Source: Actinoplanes flavus
GTDB taxonomy: Bacteria > Actinomycetota > Actinomycetes > Mycobacteriales > Micromonosporaceae
DNA: 64,000 nucleotides
Reading direction: 5' to 3'
NCBI RefSeq assembly: GCF_017592555.1
Contig: NZ_JAGFNS010000002.1
Coordinates: forward strand, 190,586 to 254,585
This document shows, in pieces, positions 52,043 to 61,409 of this stretch. A program made the position numbers and the translations under genes. Position 1 is the first letter of the stretch. Every line of letters begins with the position of its first letter. The notes under the pieces were generated by a model, which did no database searches, was not told the DNA's origin, and saw only the letters and a list, made by a program, of their open reading frames with translations.

Positions 52043-53347
52043 TCAGCCGGCCAGTCGATGGGTGACCTCGCGGACGTCGTCGCGGTCGGGCCAGCGGGCC
52101 AGTACGGGCAGCGCGCGGCGTAGCTCCGTGATGGTGGTCCGTGAGGGGATCGTTGAAGTGGTGTCCAGGACGTTCAGGATCAGTTGGCAGGCGAGGCCGG
52201 GTGCGCCGGCGTGGGCGTGGGCTTGGGCGAGTTTGGCGGTGGTGATCGCGGAGGTGCGGGCGGAGCTGGCGCTGATGCGGGGTAGGCGGGGGCTGAGTGT
52301 GTCGATCGCGCGGTTGCCGGCGCCGAGGTAGACATCGCAGGTGGCGGTGAAGATGCTGAGCAGGTCGTCGTCGGGGACGCTGGCCTGTCCGGGTGTCGGC
52401 AGGCTGCTGCTGTCGTCGGGCTGCTGGAACAGCGCGGCGGTCTGGTCCAGCGCGTATCGGGCCTGGTCGGGGCGTCGGTTGAGGGCGTATCCGTAGGCGA
52501 TTTGTTTGTAGGCCAGGGCCCGGACTCTTGCCGGTGCGGCCGGTACCCGTAAGGCGCGTTGGGCCTGTTCGACGGCGGCCACGCCGTCGCCGGCGTGGCT
52601 GATGGCCAGCATGGAGCGGCGCACGTGGGTGTACGCGGCCATGCCCGGCCAGCCGGCATGGTGCGCCCACTGCTCGGTGCGGTCGGTCCAGTACAGCGCA
52701 GACGGCAGGTCGCCTGACTCCTCGGCCATCCACGACAACGACTCGTCGTAGCGGGCCAGAACCAGACCGAACCGTGCTCGCAGCGGCGGGGGAGCACGGC
52801 GGTGCAGCACCTCGGCCAGAGCGACCTGTGCGGTGAGTGGCCGGATCAGCCTGGCGGGCGCCATCACCCGTGCGGCGTTCTGCAGTCCGGTAAGGGTCGT
52901 TTCCAGGCCGGCGAGGACCTCCTCGTCGACCGCCATGTCCTCGGTTGCGTGCTGCAGGCCAGCGAGCAGGGTGCCGCCGACCGCACCGATGCCCGCTGCG
53001 GCGAGCAGTTCCCGGCGAGAGATCGGCACCCGGATGCCACGACCGGGTATCAACACGAGCACCACGTCCTCGCCGAGGTCACGAACGTTGCGGTCACTGT
53101 CGCCGGGCCCACGGGTGTCGGCGAGGGCGGTAATCGCGCCACCGGTGTCGTAGAGCAGGTCCAGGGCAGTGGCCAGCCACGGAGCAAGGCTACGTCGGCC
53201 GGTCTCCACCTGCGAGAGCAGCGAGGGCGCACAACCCACCCGGCGGGTGACCGCGTCCAGGGTAAGCCGCCGGCCACTGCGAAGACGGCGCAGAACCGCG
53301 CCGAGATCAGGGTCTACGTGGGTGGCGTCGTTACCGGGTCTCTTCAC
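52043..53347 (-). CDS. XRE-family regulator with TPR domain
   Basis: 434 residues from a GTG at 53347. Helix-turn-helix at residues 14-55: LGAVLRRLRSGRRLTLDAVTRRVGCAPSLLSQVETGRRS. Then a short segment resembling a twin-arginine-like region (SRRELLAAAGIGAVGGTLL), common in these regulators, followed by TPR-type repeats. It is divergent from the base-modification operon and shares the 206-nt gap 53348-53553, so it probably controls that operon. Confidence 0.88.
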   Translation of the reverse strand: MKRPGNDATHVDPDLGAVLRRLRSGRRLTLDAVTRRVGCAPSLLSQVETGRRSLAPWLATALDLLYDTGGAITALADTRGPGDSDRNVRDLGEDVVLVLIPGRGIRVPISRRELLAAAGIGAVGGTLLAGLQHATEDMAVDEEVLAGLETTLTGLQNAARVMAPARLIRPLTAQVALAEVLHRRAPPPLRARFGLVLARYDESLSWMAEESGDLPSALYWTDRTEQWAHHAGWPGMAAYTHVRRSMLAISHAGDGVAAVEQAQRALRVPAAPARVRALAYKQIAYGYALNRRPDQARYALDQTAALFQQPDDSSSLPTPGQASVPDDDLLSIFTATCDVYLGAGNRAIDTLSPRLPRISASSARTSAITTAKLAQAHAHAGAPGLACQLILNVLDTTSTIPSRTTITELRRALPVLARWPDRDDVREVTHRLAG

Positions 53348-53553
53348 AGTTCTTCACACCCCGCCGTGCGAACCTCGGTTCACCGAGACGCTGACGTCAA
53401 TCTATGCGTAGACGTGGCGGGAAAGACAGCATGCCGGGCTTACTCCCGGGTGGTCGGCACCCCCACGCCGGGAGGCGACGCTGTGAGTGTCGTGAAGCTA
53501 TTCGGCGCCCTCCCGATGATTCACCGCAGGCCGGACCCAACAGGAGGTGGCCC

Positions 53554-54522
53554 GTGATCGAGTTCAAGGAGTACCAGCAGGCAGCTCAGCAAACGAGCCG
53601 GCTGGCGTTGGGAGGCCCGCAGGCCGCCATCGCCCCGATGCTCGGCCTGGCCGCCGGAACCGGCTCCATCCTCAACGTCTACCGCAAATATTTGCGCGAC
53701 GGCGTCGACCTCGCCGCCTATCGCGAGTTCCTGCGCGAAGAACTGGGCGACCTGCTGTGGTACGTGGCGGCGGTGGCGACGGCGTTCGGTCTCGATCTGC
53801 AGGACATCGCGACGGCGAACCTGCACCGCACCCGTGATCGCTATCCGGTCGGCCCGCCGGAGCAGGCGCTGATGGAATTGCCGGTTTTCGACGCCGCCTG
53901 CCCGCCGCAGGAACGCCTACCGCGCCGGCTGGTGGTCGCGTTCGCCGAGGAGACCCTCGGGTCCGGGCGCCGGGCAGCCCGCCAGATTCTGCTTGCCGCC
54001 GAGCCGAACGCCTTCCCCGACGGCCCGGTCCACGGGGAGGCCGGCAAGGTGGCCGGTTACCGGGTAGGCGGCCCGCTGGGCGATCCGTTGACCGACAACT
54101 CCCGTCGTTCGGACGCCTACCGCTATCACGACGCCATCCACCTCGGCTTCCTGGCCGTCTTGAACTGGTCACCCACGACCCGGGCGCTACTGCACCTGAA
54201 ACGCAAGTCGGATCCGATGGCCGATGAATGCGAGGACGGAGCTCGCGCGGTCTTCGCCGAGGAGGGCCTGGCCGCGGTGCTGTCCCGGCTCGCCGTCCGG
54301 CACGCGGGTTTCCAGAGCGAGGCGAGCGTGGACGGTGAGGTCATCGAGGTCGCCCGCGCGGCCTCGATGGACCTGGAGGTGCAGTCGCTGCCGGTGTGGC
54401 TGTGGCGCCGCGCCATCCAGCAAGGCTTCCAGGCGATGCGACACCTAGCGGAGAACGAAGGCGGCTACCTCGCCGTTGATCTTGACGCCCGCGAGTTGAC
54501 CTACCACAAGGTTCTGCCATGA
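53554..54522 (+). CDS. MazG-like pyrophosphohydrolase with MazG_C-type extension
   Basis: 322 residues from a GTG at 53554 with CAGGAGGTGG upstream. Residues 1-95 are MazG-like: EYQQAAQQTSRLA and FLREELGDLLWYVAAVATAFG, with metal ligands in EELGD (62-66) and the later ANLHRTRDRY. Residues 110-322 are a second domain with GDPLTDNSRRSDAYRYHD (176-193) and HLGFLAVLNWSPTTRALLHLKRKSD, matching what is described as the MazG C-terminal domain in predicted DNA-modification loci. MazG proteins hydrolyse (d)NTPs to monophosphates. The stop overlaps the next start (ATGA). Confidence 0.78.
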   Translation: MIEFKEYQQAAQQTSRLALGGPQAAIAPMLGLAAGTGSILNVYRKYLRDGVDLAAYREFLREELGDLLWYVAAVATAFGLDLQDIATANLHRTRDRYPVGPPEQALMELPVFDAACPPQERLPRRLVVAFAEETLGSGRRAARQILLAAEPNAFPDGPVHGEAGKVAGYRVGGPLGDPLTDNSRRSDAYRYHDAIHLGFLAVLNWSPTTRALLHLKRKSDPMADECEDGARAVFAEEGLAAVLSRLAVRHAGFQSEASVDGEVIEVARAASMDLEVQSLPVWLWRRAIQQGFQAMRHLAENEGGYLAVDLDARELTYHKVLP

Positions 54523-55097
54523 GCGCCGCCAGCGAATTCCGGGCCGGGCTCCGCCGGCTGCACGCCGAGAAGGACACCGCCTACCGGACGGCGTGGAAGC
54601 GCCGCGGCGAGCTGCTGTCCGTGCTGCCCAACATCGCCCGTAAGGCCGACCGGCTGGAATCCGCCGGTGCCGGTGCCCCGGGAACCCGCGACGAGGACCT
54701 GATGGACACGGTCGTCGACCTGCTGGTCTATACCCTGAAATACCAGACGCTGCTCGGCGACCAGGACCCCGCCGTCGCCGCCCACCTCTTCGACCAGCTG
54801 CCGCCGCCCTACAGCGACGGCCGGCAAGGGTTCGAAGTGCTCCTCGACGGGCTCGACCTGAGCCCGCTGGACGAGCCACCGTTCACCGCGTCGGCCGCCG
54901 AGGCAACGACCGAGGTACTGACGGCATTCCAACGGGTCGAGAGCTGCTTCACCGGGAACGCGGTGCCGGCCGGTGAACGTCAGCGGCGGGCAGCCGAGCT
55001 GGCGGCGGCCGTGGTACGGATGCTCGCCGTGTTACGGCACAAGAAGCCCTCCCTGTATCAGGGCTTTCTGGACCGCTGGGGCGGAGGCGATCGGTGA
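54519..55097 (+). CDS. Nmad1 (DUF1599)-like protein
   Basis: 192 residues. KDTAYRTAWKRRGELLSVL, then PNIARKADRLE (residues 18-47), then EDLMDTVVDLLVYTLKYQTLL is the pattern of the nucleotide-modification-associated domain 1 (DUF1599), a MazG-related all-alpha fold named from its occurrence in predicted base-modification operons. The C-terminal 90 residues are helical and less conserved. It is coupled at both ends: ATGA with the MazG-like gene and GTGATG with the TylF-like gene. Activity is predicted only. Confidence 0.68.
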   Translation: MSAASEFRAGLRRLHAEKDTAYRTAWKRRGELLSVLPNIARKADRLESAGAGAPGTRDEDLMDTVVDLLVYTLKYQTLLGDQDPAVAAHLFDQLPPPYSDGRQGFEVLLDGLDLSPLDEPPFTASAAEATTEVLTAFQRVESCFTGNAVPAGERQRRAAELAAAVVRMLAVLRHKKPSLYQGFLDRWGGGDR

Positions 55098-56059
55098 TGC
55101 GAGCCGACGACTTCACCAAGTTGCGCGCAGACCTGGAGAACGAACTGCTCGCCGGTGCCCGCTGCGTTGCCATCCTGGGGCTCACCGAAGTCGCGCTGCG
55201 GCTTCTCGACGTTCTAACCGGGTCAGGACTGATCGCGGCCGTCGACGGCATCTACACCACTACGGAACAGCCTCCGACCGCCTTGAGTGTGCCGGTGGCT
55301 CCTATGGCGGCCCTGCGGCATGCGGCACCCGATGTGGTCGTGGTCGCCTCCGACGAAGACAAACAGGACCTGCTGCTGGCTGCCCTTCCTCACCTGCAGG
55401 GCACTCCGAAGGTGATCGTGGCCGGATACCGCCACCTCGACTTCCGTGACCCCACCTACGAGCAGGAACGCGCCCAGCTGCTGGTGCCGAGCCTTGCCAA
55501 CGGATACCCGCACAGCCTGCCGCACCTATACCAGTGTCTGGCCAACGCGGCCCGCCTGCAGCTGGCCGGCGTGGTCGCCGAGTTCGGCATGTTCAAGGGC
55601 GGCACCACCATGTTCCTGTCGCGGATCATCGAACGTCTCGGGGCCGACTGGCCGGTGATCGGGTTCGACAGCTTCGCCGGCTTCCCGGCTCGGCGCAGCC
55701 CGTTGGACATGTACGACCACCCCGACTGCGTGTTCACCGACCTGGACGCCGTCCGCGGCTACCTGGCCGGCCGCAACGTCGAAATCGTGGCCGGCGACAT
55801 CGTCGAGACCGCCGCCCGCCTGCAGACCGAAGACGTCGTCCTCAGCTTCATCGACACCGACAACTACAGCTCGGCCCGCGCCGCCCTGGACGTGGTCCGC
55901 GAGCGCACCTTTGTCGGAGGGGCGATCGTCTTCGACCACTTCACCGGCACCGACCGCTTCCGCTACACGATCGGGGAACGCATCGCCGGACTACCTCTGC
56001 TGGATGACGCCCGCTACTTCCATCTGCACGGCACCGGAGTGTTCTATCGTCAACGCTGA
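55094..56059 (+). CDS. TylF-type SAM methyltransferase with extra N-terminal domain
   Basis: 321 residues, starting at the GTG (55094) or ATG (55097). Residues 1-115 are a Rossmann-like domain (CVAILGLTEVALRLLDVLTG, APDVVVVASDEDKQDLLLAALP). Residues 125-321 match TylF/MycF sugar O-methyltransferases: QLAGVVAEFGMFKGGTTMFLSR, VIGFDSFAGFP, VEIVAGDIVETAARLQ, VLSFIDTDNYSSARAALDV and GGAIVFDHFTGTDRF. Family members methylate hydroxyls on activated sugars. In this operon a hydroxyl on a modified pyrimidine or an attached group is a possible target, which is inference. Confidence 0.8.
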   Translation: MMRADDFTKLRADLENELLAGARCVAILGLTEVALRLLDVLTGSGLIAAVDGIYTTTEQPPTALSVPVAPMAALRHAAPDVVVVASDEDKQDLLLAALPHLQGTPKVIVAGYRHLDFRDPTYEQERAQLLVPSLANGYPHSLPHLYQCLANAARLQLAGVVAEFGMFKGGTTMFLSRIIERLGADWPVIGFDSFAGFPARRSPLDMYDHPDCVFTDLDAVRGYLAGRNVEIVAGDIVETAARLQTEDVVLSFIDTDNYSSARAALDVVRERTFVGGAIVFDHFTGTDRFRYTIGERIAGLPLLDDARYFHLHGTGVFYRQR

Positions 56060-56104
56060 CCAAACCCGACAAACAAGATCAATACGTACGGCGATGGGAG
56101 CCCC

Positions 56105-57139
56105 ATGACACTGCGACCCCCTGTCGCACGCAACGGCATCTACGAGCACTACTGGGCCTTCGCGTCGCGGCGCCAGGCGGCCTTCGAGCGCCGGGTCGCA
56201 GGCCTGCCCGCCCCATGGACCGACGATCCCATCCTGCAGACGTTCAAGTTCTGCAACGTATACCGGGCTGCCGACCGCGTCAGCCAGTACATGATTCGCG
56301 ACGTCTGCTACCACGACGAACCCTGCACGCCGGAAGACCGGCTGTTCCAGATCGTGGCCTTCCGCACCTTCAGCAAAATCGACACCTGGCGGGACGTACA
56401 CGCCACCCTGGGGCGCTATCCCACCCTCGACGACCTCGGCGACGGCTCGTTCACCCGAGCCCTCGACGAGGCGCGCCGCCGCAACGGCGGCCTCTACACC
56501 GGCGCGTTCATCCTCTGCGCGACCGACGCCTACGGGCAGGGACTCAAACACCTCAACCACGTCGAACTGTTCCGCCACATGTTCCTGACCGACGACCTCG
56601 GCGCGAAACTCCTCGCCGCGACCTCCCTGCGCGAGGTCTACGACCAGCTGCACGGCTACCCGCTCATGGGCGACTTCATGAGCTACCAGATCAGCATCGA
56701 CCTCAACTACTCCGGTCTGATCAACTTCTCGGAGAACGAGTTCACCCAGGCCGGACCGGGCGCGCTCCGCGGCATCAAGAAATGCTTCACCGACCTCGGC
56801 GACTACACACCGGCCGACACCATCCGCTGGATGGTCGACAACCAGGAGAAGGAACTGGACCGGCTGGGTCTGCCGTTCAACGGTCTCTGGGGCCGCCCGC
56901 TGCACGCCATCGACTGCCAGGGCCTCTTCTGCGAAACCGACAAATACTGCCGGGAAGCAGCCCCCGAACTGGCCAGCGCCCGCAAGCGAATCAAGGCGCG
57001 ATTCACGCAGACGGCCGAGCCCATGGAATTGTTCTTCCCGCCCAAATGGGACATCAACCAGCAGGTGCCGACGGGTCAGGTGCTCGGCACCACAGCATCG
57101 CCCGACCGGATGTTCGAGCCCCAAGGAACGTTGTTCTAG
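56105..57139 (+). CDS. 5-hmdU DNA kinase helical-domain family protein (putative base hypermodification)
   Basis: 344 residues; ATG at 56105 with GGGAGCC upstream. It is all helical with the conserved points I know from this family: FKFCNVYRAADRVSQY (residues 48-62), GDFMSYQISIDLNYS (189-203), EFTQAGPGALRGIKKCF and LHAIDCQGLFCETDKY (266-281). These resemble the 'putative DNA base hypermodification' proteins also described as HMUDK helical domain or alpha-glutamyl/putrescinyl thymine pyrophosphorylase-related. The basic helical fold suggests nucleic acid or nucleotide binding. It is the last gene of the four-gene operon. Catalysis is not established. Confidence 0.75.
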   Translation: MTLRPPVARNGIYEHYWAFASRRQAAFERRVAGLPAPWTDDPILQTFKFCNVYRAADRVSQYMIRDVCYHDEPCTPEDRLFQIVAFRTFSKIDTWRDVHATLGRYPTLDDLGDGSFTRALDEARRRNGGLYTGAFILCATDAYGQGLKHLNHVELFRHMFLTDDLGAKLLAATSLREVYDQLHGYPLMGDFMSYQISIDLNYSGLINFSENEFTQAGPGALRGIKKCFTDLGDYTPADTIRWMVDNQEKELDRLGLPFNGLWGRPLHAIDCQGLFCETDKYCREAAPELASARKRIKARFTQTAEPMELFFPPKWDINQQVPTGQVLGTTASPDRMFEPQGTLF

Positions 57140-57244: not shown

Positions 57245-57826
57245 ATGATCCAAATGCGGGAGCCCTGCGACGGTCCACGGGCTCTGATGCGCTGCCGATG
57301 CGATGATCCGCACCACAGAACAATCGAAATCGGGAGGTGGCTCCTGAAAGGTATTCCACGTTTCGCCGTCCACGTCATCAGCAAGGCCCTGCAAACCTAC
57401 TGGAAGGTTTGCAAGCCCAGGACCTTCGGCGTCAAGGCACTGATCCTGCACCCGGCCGACCCCGGGTTATGCGTAATGATCAGGCACTCCTACACCGATC
57501 AAGAGCGCTGGGGATTACCTGGTGGGGGCTATCGCCCTCGGAGGGAATCGGCCGAGGACGCTGTCCGTCGGGAGTGCATGGAGGAGCTGGGGGTCGAGTT
57601 TGCCGCAGCAGTCGATGTGCTAAAAGAAGTCGCGACGGAACTCGAAGGAAAACGAGACCATCTGACCATTTTCAGGGGCACCGCGTTGTCGGCTGAACTT
57701 CGGACGAATGAAGAGGTCGCGGAAGCCCGATGGACGCCCTCTGATTATTCCGGGATTCCTTCTGGAAGGCTGCTTTCTCGGTGGGCAAATATTGCCATTT
57801 CCGCCCACCGGGAAGCTAAGGCTTAG
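57245..57826 (+). CDS. Nudix hydrolase
   Basis: 193 residues from the ATG at 57245; a shorter start near 57344 after GGGAGG is possible. The Nudix box is complete: GGGYRPRRESAEDAVRRECM followed by EELGV, with LPGGGY before it. FGVKALILHPADPGLCVMI precedes it and the end is a short helix. Nudix enzymes hydrolyse nucleoside diphosphate-linked compounds. Its location after the modification genes suggests a nucleotide-derived substrate, which is inference. Confidence 0.87.
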   Translation: MIQMREPCDGPRALMRCRCDDPHHRTIEIGRWLLKGIPRFAVHVISKALQTYWKVCKPRTFGVKALILHPADPGLCVMIRHSYTDQERWGLPGGGYRPRRESAEDAVRRECMEELGVEFAAAVDVLKEVATELEGKRDHLTIFRGTALSAELRTNEEVAEARWTPSDYSGIPSGRLLSRWANIAISAHREAKA

Positions 57827-60898: not shown

Positions 60899-60926
60899 TT
60901 TGCCGACCGCCTACCGAAGAGGAGAA

Positions 60927-61409
60927 ATGAAGGTGACTGACCCGCACCCGCTTGAGCCGGCGGGGCCGCCGCCGCAGCACCCGGTGGACGTCTTCCTGCT
61001 GCTCACCGACGCCGACCGGATCCTGCTGGCGCTGCGCGAAGGCACCGGATACCGCGACGGATGGTGGAACGTGCCCAGCGGAAAGATGGAGTACAAAGAG
61101 GATGCTGTCGCCGGAGTTCGGCGGGAGGCGTACGAGGAGATCGGCGTGCGATTCGCCGACGACGAACCCCGTTTCGCTGGCGTTGTGCACCACCGCAATC
61201 CCGAAGGGCAGGGCCGGATCGCTCTGGTCTTCACGGCCGAGTTCGACGTCCGCCGTCACGGTGCACCCGTCAATCGTGAACCGCACAAATGCGCCGACAT
61301 CCGATGGACCTCCATCAACGAATTGCCGGCCAACACCGTGCCTTACACCGTTGCCAGCATCGACCTCTGGCGCACCGGCGCCGGGCTACAGATCAGCGGC
61401 TGGCAATAG
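60927..61409 (+). CDS. Nudix hydrolase
   Basis: 160 residues from ATG 60927 or GTG 60933, with AGGAG just before. VDVFLLLTDADRILLALREGTG, WWNVPSGKMEYKEDAVAGVR followed by REAYEEIGVRF (complete Nudix box), IALVFTAEFDV. Second Nudix enzyme of the cluster. It is nearer to the mutT/dNTP-cleaning group (short, soluble) than the 57245 enzyme. Probably hydrolyses a nucleotide or CDP-linked compound made in this cluster. Confidence 0.87.
   Translation: MKVTDPHPLEPAGPPPQHPVDVFLLLTDADRILLALREGTGYRDGWWNVPSGKMEYKEDAVAGVRREAYEEIGVRFADDEPRFAGVVHHRNPEGQGRIALVFTAEFDVRRHGAPVNREPHKCADIRWTSINELPANTVPYTVASIDLWRTGAGLQISGWQ

What the first reader, a model, noticed from the sequence alone, without database searches (positions are those of the whole stretch)
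53554..57139. Four-gene operon with MazG-C, Nmad1-like, TylF-like and hmdU-kinase-type families: candidate nucleotide or DNA base modification system
Seen: four plus-strand genes; the first three are joined by ATGA/GTGATG overlaps and the fourth starts 45 nt later. An XRE regulator diverges upstream. Established: MazG proteins hydrolyse (d)NTPs; DUF1599 (Nmad1), the MazG C-terminal domain and the 5-hmdU DNA kinase helical / thymine pyrophosphorylase-like family were named from predicted DNA base-modification loci; TylF enzymes O-methylate hydroxyls on sugars. Inference: the operon could make or clear a modified pyrimidine and methylate it. The combination with TylF and a MazG-C fusion is one I do not recognise as described. 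No base hydroxylase or thymidylate-hydroxymethylase is in the window, so the substrate could come from elsewhere.
Basis: partly seen in the sequence, partly recalled or inferred. Interest (0 to 1): 0.85.

Follow-up and report, generated by a model that had tools for sequence, protein, structure and literature searches.

The report
Four-gene nucleotide or DNA-base modification operon
A soil-type actinomycete carries four neighbouring genes that resemble enzymes phages use to decorate their DNA, plus a methyltransferase not usually seen with them; relatives often lie beside anti-phage genes, so it may be a defence module that handles or caps an unusual pyrimidine, but its chemistry is untested.

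Summary
Observation confirmed. Profiles place 53554 as MazG+MazG_C, 55094 as TylF, 56105 as HMUDK_hel. The 54519 product has no direct Pfam hit, but DUF1599/Nmad1 appears in 6 of 14 relatives, its model resembles an all-alpha dUTPase, and the domain is fused elsewhere to thymidylate-synthase-like (TS) or MazG_C proteins. The four-gene order recurs in 5 of 19 related loci, most with a defect. TylF lies just upstream of HMUDK_hel in 12 distinct genomes. In Rhizobiaceae and Glycomyces the upstream partner is a uracil-type TS fused to the 54519 domain; in phage LuckyBarnes two glycosyltransferases fill TylF's slot. HMUDK_hel models as DNA-glycosylase-like; the phage-type P-loop kinase is absent from 46 of 46 cellular loci. 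ImmA or TIR genes lie nearby in 14 of 14 sampled genomes and 36 of 46 loci. The window lacks these, no dUMP hydroxymethylase was found in its genome, and its MazG motif I is lost. Best reading: a conflict-associated pyrimidine-modification variant in which TylF O-methylates hydroxymethyl-uracil; biochemistry inferred.

The parts
52043..53347 (-). divergent XRE-type regulator, NsdA family (probably not part of the conserved module)
   Evidence: HTH_31 40.1 bits, NsdA_fam_reg 100.8 bits; in the other TylF-type loci only an HTH-level match in L020
53542..53547 (+). Shine-Dalgarno-like AGGAGG before the GTG start of the first gene
   Evidence: sequence
53554..54522 (+). MazG (motif I degenerate) + MazG_C protein, 322 aa
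   Evidence: MazG 22.9 bits, MazG_C 177.3 bits; the window reads GLAAGTGSI, its four-gene-order relatives GLASE[TA]G[SA]I (one Glu kept), a more distant relative GLAGEAGEL; MazG_C His/Asp/Glu columns kept
54519..55097 (+). Nmad1/DUF1599-like all-alpha protein, 192 aa; the same domain is fused to TS or to MazG_C in relatives
55094..56059 (+). TylF-family SAM-dependent O-methyltransferase, 321 aa
   Evidence: TylF 43.3 bits; sugar O-methyltransferase CalS11 E 2.7e-5; FIDTDNY and GGAIVFDHF in the sequence
56105..57139 (+). HMUDK_hel protein, 344 aa, HhH/DNA-glycosylase-like predicted fold, no P-loop family

Best explanation
The operon is a chromosomal variant of a widespread, HMUDK_hel-centred pyrimidine-modification module that in cellular genomes often lies in anti-phage loci. 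SHOWN: gene families, operon layout, recurrence, fusions, absence of the phage-type P-loop kinase, and neighbouring ImmA/TIR genes in relatives. INFERRED: MazG_C and the dUTPase-fold Nmad1 protein bind or hydrolyse pyrimidine nucleotides and so set the pool. The HMUDK_hel protein, with a glycosylase-like fold, recognises and flips a 5-modified uracil in DNA or in a nucleotide. TylF transfers a methyl group from SAM to the hydroxyl of a 5-hydroxymethyl-uracil, giving a 5-methoxymethyl cap, in the slot where a phage uses glycosyltransferases. The most likely role is phage conflict. The hydroxymethyl source in this strain is not identified.
For: Recurring order. TylF on the same strand just upstream of HMUDK_hel (gap 311 nt or less) in all 12 distinct TylF loci (13 rows, L018 and L133 being one genome) and in 2 further same-genus loci, one with a truncated TylF frame. 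TylF only inside HMUDK clade 1, 3 changes against 11.7 under shuffling. The 8 clade-1 rows outside the TylF subclade all carry TS-Nmad1 fusions. Catalytic Cys and uracil-type Asn in the TS-Nmad1 proteins checked, 6 of 6. LuckyBarnes has TS-Nmad1, TAGT, TAGT, HMUDK_hel. 42 of 59 viral HMUDK_hel loci have a TS within 3 kb (31 of 43 after merging at 90% identity). ImmA or ThsB within 8 kb in 14 of 14 sampled genomes and 36 of 46 loci overall. In L024 the TIR is ThsB_TIR, and in L024 and L012 the neighbour is Nmad2. A 5hmdU-kinase domain and a TS domain are among those newly validated in E. coli anti-phage systems, while MazG and MazG-C are predicted only (PMC13092281, sections 5 and 8 and passages).
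Against: The window genome has no TSfredii-type gene (3 of 4 other genomes rang), no ThsB_TIR (3 of 4 others rang), and only a canonical ThyA plus a cytosine-type TS relative elsewhere. MazG motif I is lost in the window, and Nmad1 shows no EExxE motif, so hydrolysis is doubtful. The solved TylF relatives found with a named substrate act on sugars. A TS-like gene may simply be a thymidylate synthase (warning in PMC5977210). The fold match rests on middling Z with Foldseek E above 0.5. No ImmA or TIR near the window operon, nor in 9 other loci of 46, among them L016 (6.3 kb contig) and L020. L028, placed inside the TylF subclade, has no TylF.
Confidence: 0.4

Rival explanations
1. Defence against phages whose own DNA carries 5-hydroxymethyluracil: the phage supplies the substrate, the glycosylase-fold HMUDK_hel protein flips or excises hmdU (or its phosphate), and TylF/MazG_C/Nmad1 process the released base or nucleotide.
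For: No dUMP hydroxymethylase found in the strain; glycosylase-like fold; precedent of Brig3, a glycosylase that excises 5hmC from phage DNA (PMC13160076, abstract); hmdU phages exist (PMC6449724, passages).
Against: 32 of 46 cellular loci have a TS-like gene within 3 kb, so self-made substrate looks the commoner state; viral HMUDK_hel loci mostly carry a TS gene too (42 of 59), so the family cannot simply destroy hmdU-DNA.
Confidence: 0.25
2. Host DNA modification: the operon puts a modified thymine into the strain's own DNA as an epigenetic or self mark.
For: Families shared with phage DNA hypermodification clusters.
Against: Patchy occurrence: PF18723 in 7 of 298 genomes of the order, own included, and an A1-type match in 10 of 394 of the class, own included; 21 plasmid records with a match; ImmA/TIR company; no source of hydroxymethyl in the strain found.
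Confidence: 0.15
3. Orphaned, partly decayed module that lost its TS, HTH-ImmA and TIR partners and does little now.
For: Missing partners; MazG motif I lost; the four same-genus loci fetched keep ImmA and TS-like genes, one of them (L148) with a truncated TylF frame.
Against: All four frames open, genes 1-3 overlapping, GC3 0.84-0.88 against 0.65-0.85 for five neighbours; 82% identity of the 56105 product to Actinomadura; a similar set without visible ImmA/TS partners in L020, though its Nmad1 has an internal gap.
Confidence: 0.12
4. Biosynthesis of a nucleoside or sugar natural product; TylF methylates a sugar as in macrolide pathways.
For: Solved TylF-type relatives include a sugar O-methyltransferase; actinomycete host; MFS transporter and NUDIX nearby.
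Against: Those flanking genes recur in 0 of 15 TylF-type loci; TylF-HMUDK_hel recurs in two rhizobial plasmids beside TIR genes; no glycosyltransferase in the operon.
Confidence: 0.08

Closest known systems
Phage 5-hmdU hypermodification clusters (here Pseudomonas phage Ab18, Mesyanzhinovviridae)
   Same: HMUDK_hel protein next to a TS-family enzyme; stand-alone or fused Nmad1-like proteins in some
   Different: Phage loci add a P-loop kinase (34 of 59 viral loci within 3 kb) and, in Ab18, an amino acid:DNA transferase; the cellular loci have no such kinase (0 of 46) and the window has no TS
Brevibacterium phage LuckyBarnes TS-Nmad1 / TAGT / TAGT / HMUDK_hel cluster
   Same: TS-Nmad1 upstream and HMUDK_hel downstream of hydroxyl-decorating transferases, no kinase found
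   Different: Glycosyltransferases in place of TylF; the window has MazG_C in place of TS
Bacterial HTH-ImmA-TSlike-HMUDK_hel-MazG_C loci (Sinorhizobium fredii, a cyanobacterial plasmid, many actinomycetes)
   Same: HMUDK_hel with MazG+MazG_C
   Different: Belong to HMUDK clade 2; no TylF beside that gene; carry ImmA and a TS-like gene that the window lacks
DefensePredictor validated E. coli systems with 5hmdU kinase and thymidylate synthase domains (PMC13092281)
   Same: Same domain families (sections 5 and 8, passages and figure legends seen)
   Different: TylF is not named in that paper's main text (0 occurrences); whether the two domains are in one system and in what order was not seen (figures and tables not held)
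Thoeris
   Same: ThsB-type TIR gene, often with Nmad2, lies near HMUDK_hel in relatives
   Different: No ThsB found in the window genome; ThsA was not looked for in any locus

Membership tests
HMUDK_hel (PF18723) | Pfam profile over gathering cut-off | tested here: met
   326.5 bits, cut-off 25, profile positions 3-280 of 281
5-hmdU DNA kinase (enzyme) | P-loop kinase domain fused to or beside HMUDK_hel | tested here: not met
   no P-loop family in the four proteins; kinase profile built from phage Ab18 ORF12 finds 0 of 46 cellular loci, window included; ORF12 itself has GTSGSGKS and a sub-threshold PF18748 hit. Against: an annotated dTMP kinase follows HMUDK_hel in L110, not caught by this profile
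Amino acid:DNA transferase / aGPT-PPlase (PF18724) | profile similarity to ADDT | tested here: inconclusive
   hhalign of A3 with one phage ADDT: probability 0.8%; no Pfam hit; only one sequence compared
MazG NTP pyrophosphohydrolase | metal-binding motif I (E..E) and motif II (EE..D); motifs recalled | tested here: not met
   motif II EELGD kept, motif I reads GLAAGTGSI in the window; profile score 0.9 bit over cut-off
MazG_C (PF18722) | Pfam profile and conserved H/D/E columns | tested here: met
   177.3 bits; H192, D193, H196, D224, E225, E227, D228 invariant in 13 rows
DUF1599 / Nmad1 (PF07659) | Pfam profile match | tested here: inconclusive
   window protein no hit; 6 of 14 relatives, best E 0.0047; a viral DUF1599 protein (44.7 bits) is also found by the profile built from the window's family (26 bits); three other viral proteins found by that profile have no Pfam match
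TylF O-methyltransferase (PF05711) | profile and acidic metal-site motifs | tested here: met
   43.3 bits, cut-off 23; FIDTDNY and FDHF seen in the sequence; which residues bind metal is recalled, not tested
Thymidine hypermodification pathway | dUMP hydroxymethylase of the TS family in the cluster or genome | tested here: not met
   none in the window; genome has a canonical ThyA and one TS relative with Asp at the uracil/cytosine-selecting position; the meaning of that position is recalled
Thoeris / ImmA-type conflict locus | ThsB TIR or HTH-ImmA partner near the module | tested here: not met
   absent from the window, and ThsB absent from the genome; present within 8 kb in 36 of 46 loci, the window being one of the 10 misses
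Active modification in vivo | modified nucleoside in DNA or pools | not testable with these tools
   needs mass spectrometry

The most novel reading that the evidence does not exclude
A cellular defence chemistry in which a TylF enzyme O-methylates 5-hydroxymethyl-uracil, giving 5-methoxymethyl-deoxyuridine in DNA or in the nucleotide pool. This would be the bacterial counterpart of phage hydroxymethyl-base glycosylation: either a self cap read by a glycosylase-fold partner, or an antiviral nucleotide in the manner of viperin products (recalled analogy). MazG_C-Nmad1 would have replaced the TS-Nmad1 supplier in this lineage.
Probability: 0.2. Interest if true: 0.85.

Novelty: new variant of a known kind. 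Interest (0 to 1): 0.6.

Why it matters
Families named from phage DNA hypermodification also sit in bacterial and archaeal conflict-type loci, and what they make there is, as far as I know, unknown. Here the TylF-HMUDK_hel pair, its TS-Nmad1 relatives, the phage glycosyltransferase counterpart, and the TIR/ImmA company together give a concrete, testable prediction: an O-methylated hydroxymethyl-uracil. They also suggest that 'nucleotide kinase domain-containing protein', the name most of these proteins bear in the plasmid records, is misleading, since the phage-type kinase is missing in 46 of 46 cellular loci. If the prediction holds, it would add a new base or nucleotide modification and tie it to phage defence.

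Tried and rejected
Kinase reading of the 56105 product: rejected (no P-loop family). Reading that the MazG_C fusion is unusual: rejected. Own-genome C34 TS relative as the hydroxymethyl supplier: not favoured, because its selecting residue is Asp and it sits with a glycosyltransferase-like gene and other biosynthetic-looking genes, not with Nmad1 (the nature of those neighbours is read from sequence by eye, no profile was run). Conserved flanks (NUDIX, S51, CDP-alcohol transferase, MFS) as parts: rejected. PADLOC and NCBIfam scans of the four proteins: nothing useful. Sequence search of the PDB with 56105 and 54519: nothing meaningful. Foldseek gave no match at E 0.001 or better for either model; only VIA-align rows informed the fold, and the tool warns that such Z can be common for helical proteins. 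hhalign of A4 with A5 only found the Nmad1 stretch already fused in two A5 rows, so it says nothing on MazG-Nmad1 homology. Sigma-70 promoter scan: nothing. The key 2015 comparative paper on nucleotide-centred conflict systems and two hypermodification papers are not held, so prior description of the TylF link cannot be excluded. A search for 5-methoxymethyl-deoxyuridine listed one paper on nucleoside analogues, unread beyond the listing. Nmad2 absence in the own genome had no positive control. No background rate was computed for ImmA or TIR genes near random genes. The genus DNA search scored only a few candidates per genome, so its counts are lower bounds.

Rows dropped: L020 and L023 left out of alignment A4 (L020 for an internal gap of about 46 residues; L023, a near-copy of other rows with a longer tail); L029, L108, L112 and L133 and frames of 250 aa or less left out of the tree; G543 (45 matching residues only) not fetched. 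Broken or odd members of the four-gene order: L027 HMUDK in two pieces, L033 Nmad1 in two frames, L020 Nmad1 with the gap, L017 a shortened MazG frame; L016 and the window are the clean cases. L148 TylF frame is 126 aa. L028, inside the TylF subclade, has neither TylF nor any other partner.


Full report
WHAT IS THERE. Pfam places gene 1 as MazG+MazG_C, gene 3 as TylF and gene 4 as HMUDK_hel; gene 2 has no direct Pfam match. NCBIfam gives no family over cut-off for the four, and an NsdA-type label for the divergent regulator. Gene 1 starts at the GTG at 53554, with AGGAGG at 53542-53547. Neighbouring genes are not conserved with the operon. The genome is 9.68 Mb in 94 contigs. It is probably an Actinoplanes relative: two genomes of its genus, G782 and G748, have hit contigs of the same lengths as the Actinoplanes regularis and Paractinoplanes polyasparticus contigs (inference).

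RECURRENCE. Of the 19 loci, chosen for similarity to gene 4, 5 have the order MazG_C, Nmad1, TylF, HMUDK_hel (L016, L017, L020, L027, L033), four of them draft metagenome assemblies, three with a broken member and one with a shortened MazG frame. TylF is next to HMUDK_hel on the same strand in 13 rows of the 46-locus survey, 12 distinct genomes including the window, and in two more same-genus genomes, one with TylF truncated. A tree of 51 HMUDK_hel proteins, with several long branches, gives two large cellular clades of 23 rows (support 100/99, and 92/86 for the second). TylF occurs only in a part of clade 1; it needs 3 changes against 11.7 in shuffles. One of the unlabelled rows there, L027, does have TylF but lies just outside the distance I used; the other, L028, has none. 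The other 8 rows of clade 1 carry TS-Nmad1 fusions without TylF. The simplest history, an inference since the root is not known, is TS-Nmad1 plus HMUDK_hel first, TylF inserted between, then TS replaced by MazG_C in the window's line.

THE SLOT. In Sinorhizobium, Rhizobium and Glycomyces the order is TS-Nmad1, TylF, HMUDK_hel. In phage LuckyBarnes it is TS-Nmad1, two TET-associated glycosyltransferases, HMUDK_hel, and another viral locus, L065, has such a glycosyltransferase between HMUDK_hel and TS. The TS-Nmad1 proteins keep the catalytic Cys and the uracil-type Asn, 6 of 6 examined (the meaning of the Asn is recalled). Hence the inference that TylF decorates the hydroxyl of a hydroxymethyl-uracil. 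A TS-family protein need not be a hydroxymethylase: PMC5977210 warns of this (passages).

COMPANY. In many relatives a TIR gene and an Nmad2 gene form a neighbouring pair (families by Pfam and PADLOC in L024, and Nmad2 by Pfam in L012 too; elsewhere by profiles built here), or an ImmA gene with a second TS-like protein stands nearby. In the 14 genomes that rang and were fetched, 14 of 14 have ImmA or ThsB within 8 kb; in all 46 loci it is 36, the misses being window, L016, L020, L028, L029, L031, L032, L104, L108 and L109. No background rate was computed. One cyanobacterial plasmid has a CBASS-type phospholipase gene directly beside HMUDK_hel. A 2026 paper reports that a 5-hydroxymethyluracil kinase and a thymidylate synthase are among domains newly validated in anti-phage systems in E. 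coli, and lists MazG and MazG-C among predicted ones (PMC13092281: sections 5 and 8 and passages seen; figures and tables not held).

THE WINDOW IS A STRIPPED CASE. The genome has no TSfredii-type gene, with three of four other genomes ringing; no ThsB_TIR, with three of four ringing; and no second Nmad1 protein. Its two TS-family genes are a canonical ThyA and one with a cytosine-type Asp elsewhere. Both Glu of MazG motif I are lost, where the other five four-gene-order relatives keep one. The four same-genus loci fetched keep ImmA and TS-like genes. So the substrate source is unknown, and the operon could use a phage-supplied base, an undetected enzyme, or be a remnant.

VERDICT. Family placement and recurrence: about 0.9. 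Role in phage conflict: about 0.5. TylF acting on hydroxymethyl-uracil: about 0.3. Novelty: new variant of a known kind; three searches with TylF listed no paper that joins it to these families (and 12 of 272 papers), in a library that lacks the main comparative studies.

Noticed in passing
L039 (own genome, contig C34), 7978-12593: TS-family gene with cytosine-type Asp between what look by eye like a glycosyltransferase and a radical SAM gene, then an exonuclease-like gene: a possible separate nucleotide or DNA modification cluster in the same genome.
   Followed up: partly
L012, L013, L019, L022-L025, L030, L034, L107, L111: ThsB-type TIR and/or Nmad2 genes beside HMUDK_hel modules in unrelated bacteria, a recurrent association of TIR signalling with pyrimidine modification.
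   Followed up: partly
L040 5459-6028 (phage Ab18 ORF12): Annotated terminase small subunit has a P-loop (GTSGSGKS) and lies beside HMUDK_hel; probably the hmdU kinase subunit, misannotated.
   Followed up: partly
L111 90-4660 (Gloeothece plasmid): CBASS-type patatin phospholipase gene directly upstream of HMUDK_hel and MazG_C, with TIR and Nmad2 after them.
   Followed up: no
L107 3838-6928 (Parabacteroides plasmid): HMUDK_hel followed by a radical SAM gene and preceded by TIR and Nmad2, perhaps another tailoring variant.
   Followed up: no
L105 6891-8469, L106 1-2675, L110 1198-4276: Acyl carrier protein, holo-ACP synthase or phosphopantetheinyl transferase genes next to HTH-ImmA genes (and C1 peptidase genes in L106 and L110) in loci with HMUDK_hel; role unexplained.
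   Followed up: no
window 57245-57826 and 60900-61409: Two NUDIX hydrolase genes downstream of the operon; the first was searched for and is not conserved with it.
   Followed up: partly
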